The translations under genes and the position numbers were made by a program. Below, one piece after another: positions 33,960 through 39,979 of a DNA stretch of 64,000 nt; the stretch's first letter is position 1; every line of letters starts with the position of its first letter. This DNA is from Streptomyces chumphonensis. Lineage in GTDB: Bacteria > Actinomycetota > Actinomycetes > Streptomycetales > Streptomycetaceae. The notes under the pieces are model-generated. The model saw nothing but the letters and a program-made list of their open reading frames with translations, did not search any database and had not been told where the DNA came from. The stretch is from positions 248,001-312,000 of the forward strand of contig NZ_JACXYU010000001.1 in the NCBI RefSeq assembly GCF_014779715.1, given 5' to 3'.

Positions 33960-34409
33960 TCAGAGCGGGTCCGGGCGGTTCGGGAGCGCGCACTCGGCCC
34001 ACACGGTCTTGCCGGGGCCGACACGGTCGCGCACGCCCCAGCGGGTGGCGAACGCCTCGATGAGGACCAACCCCCGGCCATGGTCCGCGTCCGACACCGG
34101 CACGACGCGCGTCGGCTGAGCCGGGTGCGTGTCCGACACCTCGACCCGGATCACGCCGTCACGGGCGTCCCAGGTCAGGTGCAGCGCGAAGTCCCGCCCC
34201 GGAACACGGCCGTGCAAGGCGGCGTTCGCGGCGAGTTCACCGACGACGAGCGCGACCGCGTCGTGCGGCGGCGTGCCGTACGGGTGTCCCCACGCGGTGA
34301 GCTGATGCGCGACCAGCAGACGGGCGAGACGTGCACCCCGCCGAGTCGCCGAGAAGCGCTGCGCGAAGCTGCGGACCGAGGGAGAGCTGGGCGTGTGAGG
34401 GGCTTGCAT
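33960..34409 (-). CDS. ATP-binding protein (RsbW/SpoIIAB-like HATPase)
   Basis: The 149-residue protein has the GHKL ATPase N-box VALVVGELAANAALHG, the G1 box VEVSDTHPAQP and the G2 box GRGLVLIEAFATRWGV. It belongs to the large Streptomyces family of single-domain anti-sigma-like ATPases. Divergently transcribed next to an XRE/DUF5753 gene and a DUF397 gene, it completes an AbaA-like trio, a grouping tied to development and antibiotic control. The start is probably the ATG at 34409; the long open frame beyond is shadow. No sigma factor partner is adjacent. Confidence 0.85.
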   Translation of the reverse strand: MQAPHTPSSPSVRSFAQRFSATRRGARLARLLVAHQLTAWGHPYGTPPHDAVALVVGELAANAALHGRVPGRDFALHLTWDARDGVIRVEVSDTHPAQPTRVVPVSDADHGRGLVLIEAFATRWGVRDRVGPGKTVWAECALPNRPDPL

Positions 34410-34506
34410 GCGGTTGATGCTGCTGCGGGATGACGCCCCGTCGGCAGGTCCAGCACCCATACAGAATCGCTTGTATCGGTTCACCCGCTGGACTGGGCGC
34501 ATCACT

Positions 34507-34536
34507 GTGCGTGACCATGGATCAGTCGTGCGTGAC
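34507..34536. promoter_or_regulatory. Paired direct repeats GTGCGTGAC, 21 bp apart
   Basis: GTGCGTGAC occurs at 34507-34515 and again at 34528-34536, exactly two helical turns apart, in the 189-nt region between the divergent ATPase and XRE genes. This geometry fits a dimeric regulator binding one face of the DNA, possibly the XRE protein itself. That assignment is inference. Confidence 0.4.
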
Positions 34537-34598
34537 GCAGCACGGGCGACGCACGGTACAGCACGCAACGGGGACCGGCACAGGGGAAGGCGGCTGCG

Positions 34599-35459
34599 AT
34601 GGCGACGGACAACGGCGGTGCGGGCGGAGGTTGCGGCAACGGCGGTGAGCCGGAACTGTCGGACAGCCTCAAGACCTTCGGCGCGGTCCTCAAGGCGCTC
34701 CGGGACGAAGCCCGGCTCACACAGGAGCAGTTCGCTCCCCTGGTCCAGTACTCGGTGGCGTACATCGCCAAGATCGAGCAGGGCAAGCGCTTTCCGCCGA
34801 GAGACCTGCTCGACCGCGTGGAAGCGGTGCTGGGCCCCTCCGCCGCCAGGGTCCTCGCGGCCGCCGCCAAGAGCCTGACCCGCAAGGCGGGCCTGGCGTC
34901 CTGGTTCCGCCAGTGGGCGGGCATCGAGGAAGAAGCGATCTCGCTGTACACGTACGAGTGCCGAGCCATTCCGGGACTGTTGCAGCCTGAGTCCTACATC
35001 CGCGCCGCGTTCGAGCGCCGCCTTCCGCCCCTGTCGGAGGAGCAGGTAGAGCGCCAGGTCGCGACCCGACTGGAGCGACAAAAGCTTCTGACCGAACTGC
35101 CGCACACAGCCTTCAGTTTCATCATCGAGCAGGCTCTCTTGGAACGGCAGATGGGAGGCCCAAGCGTGCAGCGCATGCTGCTTGAGCAGCTCCTGGAAGC
35201 AGGTGTAAGGCGCAACGTCGAGGTCCAGGTAATGCCGCTTCGTCAGTACGATCACGCGGGCATCGACGGTCTCATGTACCTGGCCGAGACCTCGCGCCAT
35301 GAGTGGGTCGGGTACGTCGAAGGTCAGCAGTCCAGCGTTCTCATCACGAACCCCGGCGATGTCAGCGCGATGCTTCAGCGCTATGGCAAGCTACGGTCGC
35401 AGGCCCTCGGCCGCGAAGCCACAGCAAGCCTGCTGGAGCAGATGCGAGGAGCGCTATGA
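34599..35459 (+). CDS. XRE-family regulator with DUF5753 domain (AbaA/WhiJ-like)
   Basis: The 286-residue protein has a helix-turn-helix at about 25-85 (GAVLKALRDEARLTQEQFAPLVQYSVAYIAKIEQGKR) and a C-terminal DUF5753 domain from about 100 (YTYECRAIPGLLQPESYIRA, RQEW-type core, NPGDVSAMLQRYGKLRSQAL). WhiJ-like proteins of this build work with small DUF397 proteins in Streptomyces development. Its TGA overlaps the start of the DUF397 gene (ATGA). The ATG start at 34599 follows AAGGCGG. Confidence 0.92.
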   Translation: MATDNGGAGGGCGNGGEPELSDSLKTFGAVLKALRDEARLTQEQFAPLVQYSVAYIAKIEQGKRFPPRDLLDRVEAVLGPSAARVLAAAAKSLTRKAGLASWFRQWAGIEEEAISLYTYECRAIPGLLQPESYIRAAFERRLPPLSEEQVERQVATRLERQKLLTELPHTAFSFIIEQALLERQMGGPSVQRMLLEQLLEAGVRRNVEVQVMPLRQYDHAGIDGLMYLAETSRHEWVGYVEGQQSSVLITNPGDVSAMLQRYGKLRSQALGREATASLLEQMRGAL

Positions 35460-35647
35460 GTAGCACGGAACTGGCCTGGACCAAAAGCAGCTACAGCGGC
35501 AGCTCCGGCGACAACTGCGTCGAAGTCGCCACCGGGCACGACGCCGTCCACGTCCGGGACTCAAAAGACACCCCACGCGGCCACCTCACCATCTCCCCCG
35601 CCGCATGGACCGCCTTCACCGCACTCGCAACCGACGCACACGTCTGA
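35456..35647 (+). CDS. DUF397-family small protein
   Basis: The 63-residue product matches the DUF397 pattern closely: LAWTKSSYSGSSGDNCVEVA, then VHVRDSKDTPRGHLTISPAAWTAF. These proteins are paired with DUF5753 XRE regulators and appear to modulate them, sometimes described as antitoxin-like. Its start overlaps the regulator stop by 4 bp, so translation is coupled. Confidence 0.93.
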   Translation: MSSTELAWTKSSYSGSSGDNCVEVATGHDAVHVRDSKDTPRGHLTISPAAWTAFTALATDAHV

Positions 35648-36033: not shown

Positions 36034-36792
36034 TCACGAACGACCGCCGGGCGCTCCGAAGGAGTGATCGCCGATCTCCGATCCGGTGGTCCAGGGAATC
36101 CCGCGGGGGCGGTCCAGTGCCTCCAGCAGACGAGCCGTGGCGGAGTCGTCACCGACCGAGCCCTCGCATTCGCGCAGGTAGTCCTCGATGTAGCCCCGCA
36201 GCACGGCCGCGTCGATCGTTTCCGGGGCGGCACCGGCGAATTCGGCATGTGCGTGGAGGACGAGCAGCAACTCGTCCTCCACCCGGGCCAGCCCGGGACC
36301 GAGAGCGGGCTGGAAGTAGGGGAGGTCGAGCACGCGTCCGCCCAGGCGCAGGTAGAACCGGAGCCGTGCCGCCGCGTCACCGTGATCCACCGTCGACCCG
36401 GCGGCCGGGTTCGCAGAGCGCCCCAGGGGGTCGGACACCTCGGCCAGCACGAGGCACGGGTCGTACCACGTGATCCAGTGGCGCAGCGCCTCCCGGAGCA
36501 GCGCCCCGCCGGTGCCGGAGCCGCGCAGGCCCGGCCGCACCGCCAGCCAGGACAGGAGCACGACCCGCCGCTTCGCGTCCCACTCACCGATCGCGGTTCC
36601 CAGCGGTCTGCCGTCCGGGGCGTGGCTGGCGAAGACGGTCGCCGACCCGACGTTCACGAGTTTTCGCAGTTGCGCGGGATCGCCCAGTTCATCGGCCGTG
36701 AACGACGGTTTGAGGATCTCCTGGTAGATGCGGTCGAGTTCGGCTCCGGGGGCGGCGATGTGAGTGATGCGCTGACTTCGGGGCACCTGCAT
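36034..36792 (-). CDS. GNAT-family acetyltransferase-like protein
   Basis: The 252-residue protein has a GNAT core at about 35-185: TVFASHAPDGRPLGTAIGEW, VVLLSWLAVRPGLRGSGTGGALL as the acetyl-CoA binding loop and LRFYLRLGGRVLDLPYFQP as the last strand-helix. A C-terminal tail of about 65 residues has no match I recognise. The ATG follows GGGGGAG at six nt. It is divergent from the membrane-protein/NTPase pair at 36943, sharing a 150-nt promoter region. The substrate is unknown. Confidence 0.8.
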   Translation of the reverse strand: MQVPRSQRITHIAAPGAELDRIYQEILKPSFTADELGDPAQLRKLVNVGSATVFASHAPDGRPLGTAIGEWDAKRRVVLLSWLAVRPGLRGSGTGGALLREALRHWITWYDPCLVLAEVSDPLGRSANPAAGSTVDHGDAAARLRFYLRLGGRVLDLPYFQPALGPGLARVEDELLLVLHAHAEFAGAAPETIDAAVLRGYIEDYLRECEGSVGDDSATARLLEALDRPRGIPWTTGSEIGDHSFGAPGGRS

Positions 36793-36942
36793 GGGTCGCT
36801 CCCCCACTTCTGGAAATGGAGACACGATGGCACAGCCCGCCGACGCCCACAAGAAGTGAGGACTTCCGGGGAGCACTCCTCAATGGCGTGATTCTGACGT
36901 ACTGTCAAATCATCAGCGCAACGGCGAGAGGCGGAAGCACTC

Positions 36943-37452
36943 ATGGCCGGTCTCGAACCCCCGCCCGAGAACATCTCTCCCTCATCCTCCGAAGCCTTTT
37001 CCGCCGAACCTCTCTGGGGAATCCGCCTGCTGGGCCGTGTCGTCAACGGGCTCACCCGGGAACCTCTGCTGCTGTGGGGTTTCGGGACCCTGTTGCTGCT
37101 CAGCACGGTGGTGCAGTTCCTGGGCTCGGCCTTCGCCACCTACGGCTGGCTGTTGCTGGCCGTCTACACCCTGACGACGCTCAGCTGGCTGGCGACCCGG
37201 TCCCGTCCGCGCCGTGATCCGCGCGGACGGGACCGGACACGGCTCTCGGTCCGGGGGAGTCGTGACGTGTCGATCGACGATACGGGGAGTATCCGTGGCA
37301 GAGGCGAGGCGCAGCGTCGTACGCACGTTACGGTCCGTCGTGCGAAGGGTGTTCGCATCACGGGATCGGGGAACATCGGCTCCGCCGACGGTCTCTCGCC
37401 CCCCAAAGGAAGGGAGGGCGCCGACGCCCCCGAGCCGCCCGGAGGATCGTGA
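36943..37452 (+). CDS. Two-helix membrane protein with a C-terminal glycine-rich repeat
   Basis: The 169-residue protein has a polar N-terminus, two predicted membrane helices (about 41-62 and 66-84), a basic stretch and two similar segments about 28 residues apart: SVRGSRDVSIDDTGSI (102-117) and TVRRAKGVRITGSGNI (130-145). The pattern suggests short beta-strand repeats. A related segment occurs inside the large NTPase that follows. Third-position GC is lower over 37300-37400 than in flanking genes. I do not recognise a named family. Confidence 0.7.
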   Translation: MAGLEPPPENISPSSSEAFSAEPLWGIRLLGRVVNGLTREPLLLWGFGTLLLLSTVVQFLGSAFATYGWLLLAVYTLTTLSWLATRSRPRRDPRGRDRTRLSVRGSRDVSIDDTGSIRGRGEAQRRTHVTVRRAKGVRITGSGNIGSADGLSPPKGREGADAPEPPGGS

Positions 37453-37471
37453 TCCACGGGGCGGTGACGAC

Positions 37472-39979
37472 GTGCCCGTGGCGGATGGCGTCCCCGCGGC
37501 CCTGGCCCCCCACCTGCGGACGCTCCTCGCCGCGGCCGAGTCCGGTCGCCCGGCCAGGTTCCACGTCGTCGCCGACAGCGGCTGCGGCAAGACACTCCTG
37601 CTCTCGCAGGCCGCTGCGGCCCTCAACGGGCTCGGCTACCTGACCCTGTTCGTCACCGCGTCCGAACCCGCCTACGGTGCGGACGACACCTCGGGCGGTC
37701 TCGCACGTCTCATGGCGGACAAGGCCGCCTGCCGGCTGCTGATCAGCGCGATGGGCGACGACATCGCGCGGACCCGGGCCTTCTCCCCGCGCGCCGGGCG
37801 CGCCGACCGTGAGTCGACGGCAGGGGCCGCGGACGCCCGGGCCGAGCTGCGCTCCCGGGTCGAGGCCGCCCGCGTCACCGAAGCGCCCGGCCCTCTGTTG
37901 GGCGAGGCCGGCACCACCATCGTCGTGCGGAACTCGACCGGCGTCGTGGTCTCGGGATCGGGCTCGATCGCACCGACGGCCGACCAGACCGCCCAGCTGA
38001 TGACCGACATCGACCGCATGGGCGACAATCTGATCACCGCACTGCGCGGCGTCCCCGAGCACATACCGCTGGCGATCGTGGTGGACGACGTGCACACCCT
38101 CCGTGGAACGAGCGTGGAACCGTGGCTGACCCGGGTGCTCGCGGGAGTCTCCCGGGCCTTCGTCATCCGCGCAGCGCGTCCCGCTCCGGGGCGGGGGGCC
38201 GTCGCCGAGCGGGAACGGGTGATACGGCTGACGCGGATGACCGCCGCGGAGTGCTCCGCGCACGCCGTGAGCGCCCTGGTGGCCGTCGGCTGGCCGAGCC
38301 ACCGGGCGGAACGGGCGGCGGCCACCGTCTACGAAGTGACCCGGGGGCACCCGATCGCTGTCGTCACCTGCTGCGAGATCCTGGCGGCGGCCGACCACGG
38401 CGAGCGGGACCCCGCGACCATCCGCTCGCTGCTGACCGGCGCGGACCCCCACTGGGGAGCGGCGGGCGCCATCGCCACCGTCCGCGACCACGTGGACCGT
38501 TCGGCCCGGGCGCTCCTGGGGCGGCCCGTGGAGCTGTTCGACCAGCTGGTCGTCATGCGACGCTGCCGTCTCCCGCTCCTGGCCGCCGTCCTCCGGGAGC
38601 AGGGGGTCCTCGAAGAGGACGCGGGCCGACTCCACGACTGGCTCACCCAACGCGCGTTCACCACGCTGTTCGACGACGACCCCGACGAGGGCTGGCGCCT
38701 GCACGACTACCTGCGGGAGAACGCCGAACGGCTCCTGGCGGCCGAGGAGCCCAGCCGCCACCAGCAGCTGCACGCGGCCGTCGAGCGGTACTACCGCGGG
38801 GTGCTCAACTTCGACGACCGGGCCGCGTACGCCGATGGTCAGCGCCACGAGGACCCGGCGTGGCAGCGCGAGTCCCTGGAGTGGCTGCACCACGCCGCCC
38901 GACTCGACCGCCGCGACTTCCCCTCGGTCCGCAACGCGATGATCCGGCTCTTCCTGGACGCCTTCTGGTGGTGGGACGCCGAGATCCCCTCGACCTACTG
39001 CGGCGAACTGCTCGCCGCCTACCGCGCCCTCCCCGCTCGACTGGACCTGGAGTGGGTCGACTGGCTCGCCGACTTCCGCACGAGCTACGTACCCGGGCAG
39101 GGCAACCAGATCCCCGGCCGGGACGTCGCGCGCTGGGCGGAGGCCGGAGTCGCGCTGAACAAGCTCTGCGCGAAGCTGGAACTCCGGCGTGAGAGCGATC
39201 CCACCGATCCCGACCTGCGGCGCGTCCACGCCATCACCTGCTTTCTGCGGGGCGACATCGCCTGGTACGGCAGCGACGGCTCGGACGGCTCCCGCACCCG
39301 GGCGGCGGCGTGGTACCGGGCGTGCGCCCGCACCTGCACCGAGCCCGCCTCCCACTGGATCGCCACGTGGGCCCGTTGGGCCGAGGCCACCCTGTGGGTG
39401 GAGGCCGACCCGGCCCACGCGCGCGCTCTCGCCGCCGGGCTCCAGGAGCGCGTCGAGGAGGACGGGGACCGGGAACTCCTCGTCTACCTCATCACCCTGT
39501 ACGCGGAGCTGGCGTGGCGGGAAGGACGGCCGGACGACGCGTTCGACCTCCACACACGAGCCGTGCTGCACGCGTTCGTCTACCAGATCCGGCAGGAGTT
39601 GCTCCGACAGGCGCCCAGCGCCTACTCGCACTCCGTGCTCAGGTCCACGGTCGCCCGTGCCGAGGCGTGCTTCGCGGCCGCGGGCGAGGCGGGGCTGCAC
39701 GACGCGGTGGCCCGTGCGGCGGCACGCGGGCGGGCGTACTTCGCCCCCTACTGGCTGCGTCGGGGGCTTCCGCCGGATCACCCGCACGGCTTTCCGCCGG
39801 GACCCGCCCCCGAGGATCTGGGCTCGACCCGTACCCGCTACGCCGACGACGTCCAATGGGTCATCGACGCGATGGAGGGCGAACTGGGCGCGCCCCTGGA
39901 GGACCCCCTCCGCACGAGCCCCCCGGAGCGGGGGGAGGGGGACGACGGCACGCCCACGGGTCGCAGGCCGCCACCGTGA
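37472..39979 (+). CDS. Large STAND-like P-loop NTPase with helical repeat C-terminus
   Basis: Taken from the GTG at 37472, the protein is 835 residues. It has Walker A ADSGCGKT (34-41), an insert with TIVVRNSTGVVVSGSGSI (149-166), Walker B LAIVVDDVH (200-208), a winged-helix-like region (about 330-430), and a long Trp/Ala-rich helical region resembling TPR-type repeats to the end. This build fits STAND NTPases, which act as switches in signalling or defence. Alternative starts are GTG at 37478 or GTG at 37295; the latter has a good GGGGAG but would overlap the membrane gene by 158 nt and include a TTA codon. Function is unknown. Confidence 0.75.
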   Translation: MPVADGVPAALAPHLRTLLAAAESGRPARFHVVADSGCGKTLLLSQAAAALNGLGYLTLFVTASEPAYGADDTSGGLARLMADKAACRLLISAMGDDIARTRAFSPRAGRADRESTAGAADARAELRSRVEAARVTEAPGPLLGEAGTTIVVRNSTGVVVSGSGSIAPTADQTAQLMTDIDRMGDNLITALRGVPEHIPLAIVVDDVHTLRGTSVEPWLTRVLAGVSRAFVIRAARPAPGRGAVAERERVIRLTRMTAAECSAHAVSALVAVGWPSHRAERAAATVYEVTRGHPIAVVTCCEILAAADHGERDPATIRSLLTGADPHWGAAGAIATVRDHVDRSARALLGRPVELFDQLVVMRRCRLPLLAAVLREQGVLEEDAGRLHDWLTQRAFTTLFDDDPDEGWRLHDYLRENAERLLAAEEPSRHQQLHAAVERYYRGVLNFDDRAAYADGQRHEDPAWQRESLEWLHHAARLDRRDFPSVRNAMIRLFLDAFWWWDAEIPSTYCGELLAAYRALPARLDLEWVDWLADFRTSYVPGQGNQIPGRDVARWAEAGVALNKLCAKLELRRESDPTDPDLRRVHAITCFLRGDIAWYGSDGSDGSRTRAAAWYRACARTCTEPASHWIATWARWAEATLWVEADPAHARALAAGLQERVEEDGDRELLVYLITLYAELAWREGRPDDAFDLHTRAVLHAFVYQIRQELLRQAPSAYSHSVLRSTVARAEACFAAAGEAGLHDAVARAAARGRAYFAPYWLRRGLPPDHPHGFPPGPAPEDLGSTRTRYADDVQWVIDAMEGELGAPLEDPLRTSPPERGEGDDGTPTGRRPPP

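What the first reader, a model, noticed from the sequence alone, without database searches (positions are those of the whole stretch)
36943..39979. Membrane protein and STAND-like NTPase share a glycine-rich beta-repeat motif
The membrane protein carries SVRGSRDVSIDDTGSI and TVRRAKGVRITGSGNI, about 28 residues apart. The NTPase has TIVVRNSTGVVVSGSGSI inserted between Walker A and Walker B. The shared V-x-x-x-x-G-V-x-[IV]-x-G-[ST]-G-x-I pattern in two adjacent genes suggests that the two proteins stack or assemble through these strands. A membrane-bound sensor joined to a nucleotide switch would fit a signalling or defence device. I know of no named system with this pair.
Basis: partly seen in the sequence, partly recalled or inferred. 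Interest (0 to 1): 0.6.

Follow-up and report, generated by a model that had tools for sequence, protein, structure and literature searches.

The report
Membrane NLR-like switch with stacking repeats
A Streptomyces membrane-anchored molecular switch, related to immune NLR proteins, carries matching short beta-like repeats in its membrane part and inside its ATPase core, which suggests that it may signal by stacking them; in the relatives found, it sits next to an acetyltransferase gene.

Summary
The shared motif is real. A model built from membrane-side repeats of the seven relatives, without any NTPase motif, ranks the NTPase segment first of 819 positions in the window protein; done for each protein in turn, this holds in 7 of 8. 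The "two adjacent genes" are one protein elsewhere: in 8 of 8 relatives (two near-identical) a single ORF holds a TM hairpin, repeats R1 and R2, a linker, and a STAND NTPase with repeat R0 between Walker A and B. In the window the frame breaks in the linker. R0 matches R1/R2 of its own protein better than those of others (6 of 40320 permutations by mean score, 73 by best score). The fold is STAND/NLR-like. The layout recalls HET-S/NWD2 and Bell/BASS amyloid signalling, but the repeats match no Pfam or PDB sequence, lack HRAM and RHIM signatures, and R0 sits inside the NTPase. AlphaFold does not settle the structure. Best reading: a membrane NLR-like switch that assembles by repeat stacking; this mechanism is inferred.

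The parts
36943..37452 (+). Membrane protein P0001 (169 aa): TM hairpin, then R1 and R2, then Pro-rich tail
   Evidence: corresponds to the N-terminal part of one fused ORF in 8 of 8 relatives
37063..37200 (+). Transmembrane helical hairpin, residues 41-86 of P0001
   Evidence: AF2 helices 41-60 and 62-86, block pLDDT 69-85; a hydropathy cut-off flags only residues 41-61 in the window protein, but two stretches or one long one in the relatives
37243..37293 (+). Repeat R1 (residues 101-117)
37327..37377 (+). Repeat R2 (residues 129-145)
37378..37471 (+). Linker with the frame change: P0001 stops at 37450-37452, candidate NTPase GTG at 37472; the 8 relatives are continuous here
37472..39979 (+). 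STAND-type NTPase P0002 (835 aa) with helical, TPR-like C-terminal region
   Evidence: fold from the model of relative L005; start codon inferred
37565..37594 (+). Walker A (residues 32-41 of P0002)
   Evidence: DSGCGK core invariant in the 8 rows of A3
37919..37969 (+). Repeat R0 (residues 150-166 of P0002), in a segment that puts Walker A and B 165 residues apart, against 101 in a homologue without the motif (L052)
38072..38089 (+). Walker B (residues 201-206 of P0002)
36034..36792 (-). GNAT acetyltransferase, divergent neighbour and conserved partner (start inferred by alignment)
36793..36942 (.). 150-bp gap between the divergent GNAT and membrane genes, presumably holding their promoters
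   Evidence: coordinates only; inference

Best explanation
A membrane-anchored STAND (NLR-like) signalling ATPase that uses its own short beta-arch repeats as a homotypic assembly element, with a GNAT acetyltransferase as its conserved partner. Shown here: TM hairpin, R1-R2, linker, NTPase with inserted R0, helical C-terminal region, GNAT neighbour. Inferred: at rest R0 is held on the NTPase and R1/R2 are unfolded near the membrane; a ligand at the C-terminal region drives nucleotide-dependent oligomerisation; the ring presents several R0 segments, which stack with R1/R2 as rungs of a beta-solenoid or cross-beta assembly; this clusters the TM hairpins and switches on an output, either damage to the membrane or activation of the GNAT. 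In the window the gene is split in the linker, so the same contacts would have to form between two proteins.
For: One-ORF architecture in 8 of 8 relatives, L003 and L004 near-identical. R0 ranked first by R1/R2 models of other proteins in 7 of 8; window 0 of 200 shuffles as high. Mean own-protein match 21.6 against 12.0 for other proteins, 6 of 40320 permutations; 25.3 against 17.1 by best score, 73 of 40320; 3 of 5040 (mean score) without sister L005. STAND fold of relative L005: Apaf-1 E 1.3e-4, NRC1 Z 14.0, STAND-TPR 6mfv over 501 residues at Z 10.6. AF2 of L005 draws R1 and R2 as two strand pairs of equal length at an offset of 22 residues (107-111/115-118 and 129-133/137-140), as two stacked rungs would look. 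The R0 segment is extra relative to the motif-free TM-STAND L052. GNAT adjacent in 9 of 9 loci, window included.
Against: Those strands have pLDDT of only about 33-43 and R0 is coil at about 22-23; P0001 alone shows no strands in the repeat region, pLDDT about 40. No match to known amyloid signalling families by Pfam or PDB sequence and no HRAM signature in 24 repeats. R0 fails in L007 (rank 43; 200 of 200 shuffles) and is weak in L013 (rank 1, but 117 of 200 shuffles as high) and L011 (12 of 200); own-protein mean scores are also low in L007 (8), L013 (9) and L011 (-9). Unguided alignment of N-part with NTPase picks out the repeats in L003, L004, L005 and L014, at 4, 5, 25 and 28 of 300 shuffles, and not in L006, L007, L011 and L013. 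Registers were set by eye; one residue of L007 R0 was left out. Shared ancestry is not removed from the permutation test. Fold Z values of 11-14 can be common for helical proteins (note). A fused protein does not need a motif to find its own other half, so plain HET-S-style signalling between two proteins does not explain conservation in the fused relatives.
Confidence: 0.45

Rival explanations
1. The repeats form an ordinary folded intramolecular dock: R0 packs on the R1-R2 rungs inside one protein and holds the switch off; no polymer forms.
For: The motifs lie in one polypeptide in 8 of 8 relatives and co-vary within a protein, which a cis contact explains directly.
Against: In the model of L005, R0 has no strands while R1 and R2 do, though confidence there is very low. 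The window protein is split, so the contact would have to form in trans there.
Confidence: 0.27
2. The segments are flexible Arg/Gly/Ser/Val linkers that look alike through shared ancestry or composition and have no pairing role.
For: Low pLDDT; weak or absent signal in L007, L011, L013; few substitutions between the near pair L003/L004, so no clear sign of special constraint.
Against: Position-specific match, not composition alone (shuffles); own-protein preference; V, I or L at position 3 in 21, at position 11 in 24, and V, L or M at position 9 in 21 of 24 repeats.
Confidence: 0.16
3. The window copy makes one protein like its relatives: the frame break is a sequencing or assembly error, or is bridged by frameshifting. 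Concerns the window instance only.
For: 8 of 8 relatives are fused; draft genome of 52 contigs; both frames open through 37214-37449.
Against: The break is in the linker and harms no domain; a GTG follows shortly. No close relative was found to compare.
Confidence: 0.4
4. The GNAT is the real effector or regulator and the repeats serve only localisation: the GNAT modifies something near the membrane, gated by whichever membrane protein it is paired with.
For: The GNAT also adjoins an unrelated protein with a C-terminal TM pair in 3 loci and is fused to one in L049.
Against: Does not explain co-variation of R0 with R1/R2. In L045 the GNAT stands without a recognised partner.
Confidence: 0.3

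Closest known systems
HET-S/NWD2 and HRAM amyloid signalling of fungi (PMC5485727 and PMC4518210, passages read)
   Same: Two imperfect repeats on a membrane-acting part and a single copy on an NLR encoded next door; receptor and effector repeats resemble each other pair by pair.
   Different: Repeats are fused in cis in the 8 relatives; the NLR copy is inside the NTPase, not at the N-terminus; the HRAM core positions and glycine 19 do not fit. A HeLo domain was not seen (no Pfam hit for P0001).
BASS motifs of Bell-NLR pairs in filamentous bacteria (Dyrka et al. 2020, not held; known through passages of PMC7889193, PMC8086366, PMC12261475 and PMC9815663)
   Same: Actinobacterial; small membrane-helix protein with a C-terminal motif adjacent to or overlapping an NLR gene with the same motif, as in the window.
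   Different: The NLR motif is central, not N-terminal; the relatives are single proteins; GNAT partner. BASS profiles could not be run here.
STAND NTPases with TPR sensors and NLRs (Apaf-1, NRC1, PDB 6mfv)
   Same: NTPase and helical C-terminal region, Walker A and B.
   Different: N-terminal TM hairpin plus repeats, where known NLRs have domains such as CARD, CC or TIR (recalled); 144-165 residues between Walker A and B.

Membership tests
STAND/NLR-like NTPase | Walker A and Walker B in a STAND-type fold followed by helical repeats | tested here: met
   DSGCGK and DD invariant in the 8 rows of A3; fold matches for relative L005. Pfam AAA_16 is below its cut-off (27.7 vs 32.6 bits).
HET-s-related amyloid motif (HRAM) | Glycine at position 19 with hydrophobic residues at 5, 8, 10, 16, 18 | tested here: not met
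   0 of 24 repeats, also with T or A allowed at 10; 2 of 24 (L006 R2, L011 R1) with 4 of 5. Whole-protein scan: none in the window proteins, 4 hits in 8 relatives, all in TM or C-terminal stretches. Definition.
HET-s_218-289, Ses_B, NACHT_sigma, RHIM (Pfam) | Profile match | tested here: inconclusive
   No Pfam family at E up to 10 for P0001, the L014 repeats or the R0 segment, but HMMER filters drop weak matches, and only 38 of 155 double-repeat proteins matched PF11558 in the paper.
RHIM/PP | [IV]Q[IVLS]G core (pattern recalled) | tested here: not met
   Absent from all 10 sequences scanned.
BASS/Bell-NLR amyloid signalosome | Same motif at the C-terminus of a small membrane-helix protein and at the N-terminus of the adjacent NLR | tested here: not met
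   The motif is shared and P0001 is small with TM helices, but the NLR-side motif lies between Walker A and B.
BASS families 1-10 | Match to a BASS profile | not testable with these tools
   Not among the libraries used; source paper not held.
Functional amyloid | Cross-beta fibre formation and seeding | not testable with these tools
   Needs the bench.
GNAT acetyltransferase | GNAT domain with R-x-x-G-x-G acetyl-CoA motif (motif recalled) | tested here: met
   Acetyltransf_1 just above cut-off in the window protein (21.8 vs 20.7 bits), below it in L002; R90, G93, G95 invariant in 8 of 8.
Known anti-phage defence system | PADLOC model match | tested here: not met
   None at E up to 1 for P0001, P0002 and two GNATs.

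The most novel reading that the evidence does not exclude
A new class of signalling-amyloid NLR: an all-in-one membrane protein in which one rung of the beta-solenoid is built into the ATPase core, so that nucleotide-driven ring formation directly nucleates stacking of the membrane-side rungs, with a GNAT as output. The window lineage, by gene fission in the linker, would show how an all-in-one NLR becomes a two-gene amyloid signalosome.
Probability: 0.25. Interest if true: 0.82.

Novelty: new variant of a known kind. Interest (0 to 1): 0.56.

Why it matters
Amyloid signalling motifs are described at the N-termini of NLRs and the C-termini of effectors. [quoted passage not shown] Here a repeat sits inside the NTPase and evolves together with two repeats on the membrane side of the same protein, with a constant acetyltransferase neighbour. 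If stacking is real, it gives a small, testable system for how an NTPase ring starts a beta-stack at a membrane, and a candidate fused counterpart of two-gene systems.

Tried and rejected
Conserved two-gene pair: rejected, 8 of 8 relatives are fused. HRAM or RHIM membership: signatures absent from the repeats; Pfam silent. PDB sequence match for a profile of R1-R2 from 6 proteins (A5), up to E 10: none; for P0002 up to 0.1: none. A repeat-bearing partner elsewhere in the genome: none credible; the fourth hit is an ABC transporter by its sequence, the fifth (E 1.4, L062) was not looked at. A split membrane gene with repeats upstream of the distant homologue L008: none recognised by eye in the three forward frames. 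Mobile carriage: no match in plasmids or phages with the L005 protein, none in viral contigs with A3, where two peptide patterns were used. Charge depletion of the NLR-side repeat, as reported for HRAM r0: strong in the window (1 charged residue vs 5 and 4) but not general. Selection on the repeats from L003/L004: too few changes. The Foldseek and VIA lists hardly touch the repeats, so they say nothing on them. NCBIfam: nothing relevant for P0001 or P0002.

Full report
What is there. The window lies in a 5.8-Mb draft genome, most likely Streptomyces: a locus of a genome listed as same genus sits on a contig whose length equals that of a named Streptomyces contig (15742 bases). P0001 (36943-37452) has a TM hairpin and repeats R1 and R2; P0002 (37472-39979) is an NTPase with repeat R0 between Walker A and Walker B. 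The listed ORF start at 37214 is misleading: third-position GC follows the membrane frame up to about 37200, is indistinct through the repeats, and follows the NTPase frame from about 37420-37450.

The motif is not chance. R2 against R0 was reached by 1 of 5000 shuffles, R1 against R0 by 13, R1 against R2 by 14. The strongest test leaves out every R0: a matrix from R1 and R2 of the other seven proteins, slid along each NTPase, ranks R0 first in 7 of 8 (window 1 of 819 positions, 0 of 200 shuffles as high; L003, L005, L014 also 0 of 200; L006 3, L011 12, L013 117 of 200). L007 fails (rank 43, 200 of 200); its repeat carries an extra residue. Without such a model, plain alignment of N-part with NTPase finds the repeats in L003, L004, L005 and L014 (4, 5, 25 and 28 of 300 shuffles as high) and not in L006, L007, L011 and L013. 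Registers were chosen by eye, so the numbers are somewhat generous. L004, nearly identical to L003, was dropped.

Relatives. A genome-contig scan gave 6 loci; 150 genomes of the genus gave 2 with a match, own included; 394 of the family gave 16, of which 6 are strong (E below 1e-100, own included); 396 of the phylum gave only the own genome at 1e-8; 100 'relatives' gave 3, own included, the other two weak. After removing duplicates there are 8 repeat-bearing relatives (L003, L004, L005, L006, L007, L011, L013, L014). In all 8, membrane part and NTPase are one ORF. The window is the only split copy seen, and no close relative was found to tell fission from error or frameshifting. The break lies in the variable Pro-rich linker, so both halves keep their domains.

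Co-variation. R0 scores 21.6 on average with R1/R2 of its own protein and 12.0 with those of others; 6 of 40320 permutations do as well, 3 of 5040 without the sister L005. With the better of R1 and R2 the figures are 25.3, 17.1 and 73 of 40320. Own scores are low in L007, L011 and L013. Shared ancestry is not fully removed by this test. A similar pattern, receptor repeats grouping with those of their own effector, is described for HRAM pairs (PMC4518210, passages).

Structure. AF2 of the L005 protein (7 rows, mean pLDDT 64.6) gives the NTPase with middling and the helical C-terminal region with good confidence, and draws R1 and R2 as two strand pairs of equal length 22 residues apart, at pLDDT of about 33-43; R0 is coil. 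AF2 of P0001 (6 rows, mean pLDDT 54.6) gives a TM hairpin and no strands in the repeats. Fold matches are Apaf-1, plant NRC proteins and a STAND-TPR protein, with the caution that attaches to helical proteins. The repeats remain structurally unproven.

Insertion. Walker A to Walker B spans 144-165 residues in the repeat-bearing set, 101 in the motif-free TM-STAND L052 and 134 in the fragment L051b, so R0 comes in a segment that is extra at least relative to L052.

The missed partner. A GNAT gene adjoins the NTPase in the window (36034-36792, divergent) and in all 13 locus records searched, which are the 8 relatives, three duplicates (L002, L010, L012), L008 and L026; L015, L016 and the weak loci L017-L024 were not in that search. 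Orientation varies, downstream or divergent. Conversely, a GNAT profile found 14 genes in 12 of 388 family genomes: 6 beside the repeat-bearing STAND (own included), 1 beside a TM-STAND without the motif, 1 on a contig with a STAND fragment about 4.7 kb away (L051), 3 beside a different 754-805-residue protein with a C-terminal TM pair, 1 fused to such a protein (L049, 1015 residues), 1 without a recognised partner (L045), 1 at a contig edge (L050). Two of these four other proteins were scanned against Pfam; apart from the GNAT part of L049 nothing was found. L045, L047 and L053 share neighbouring genes by eye: L053 has the TM-STAND beside the GNAT, L047 the other membrane protein, L045 neither, which points to exchange or loss of the partner. 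Genes come from a home-made caller.

How it may work. The fold, the membrane anchor and the repeats make an NLR-like switch that assembles at the membrane the best reading; the stacking step and the output are inferred. Conservation of matched repeats inside one chain is awkward for plain two-protein templating and fits stacking between subunits, or a cis dock, better.

Known work. Six paper searches found amyloid-NLR and STAND papers, but nothing in the listings or the passages that I saw describes this STAND-GNAT pair or a repeat inside the NTPase. Seven papers were seen as passages, none in full, and the key bacterial paper is not held. PMC8195603 has no 'acetyltransferase' in its main text; PMC7159879, PMC10853773 and PMC12839542, which hold 'acetyltransferase' and 'STAND NTPase', were seen only as listings. 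So 'not described' is limited to those searches.

Verdict. It is a new variant of NLR-type signalling with candidate stacking repeats; the amyloid reading is open.

Noticed in passing
L049:5019-8066 (minus), L046:6709-9126 (minus), L047:4230-6494 (minus), L048:3202-5466: A second family of 754-805-residue proteins with a C-terminal TM pair pairs with the same GNAT and is naturally fused to it in L049; the two members scanned (L047, L049) show no Pfam family besides the GNAT part.
   Followed up: partly
L045, L047 and L053: Similar gene neighbourhood (by eye) with the GNAT in all three, but beside it the TM-STAND in L053, the other membrane protein in L047 and no recognised partner in L045.
   Followed up: partly
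window 34599-35647 and 33960-35300 (minus strand): XRE-type regulator followed by a small DUF397-like ORF, near an ORF that reads like a histidine-kinase-type ATPase: looks like a common Streptomyces regulator set (recalled, not tested).
   Followed up: no
window 37213-37450: Third-position GC in the membrane frame is about 0.65-0.8 over the repeats, against 0.9-1.0 in the TM region; both frames stay open here.
   Followed up: partly
L054:9855-12188 (minus): A further P-loop protein about 2.6 kb from the NTPase, whose called start reads like a short VVQAG...GDIHFH-type N-terminal motif seen in actinobacterial NLRs (resemblance recalled).
   Followed up: no
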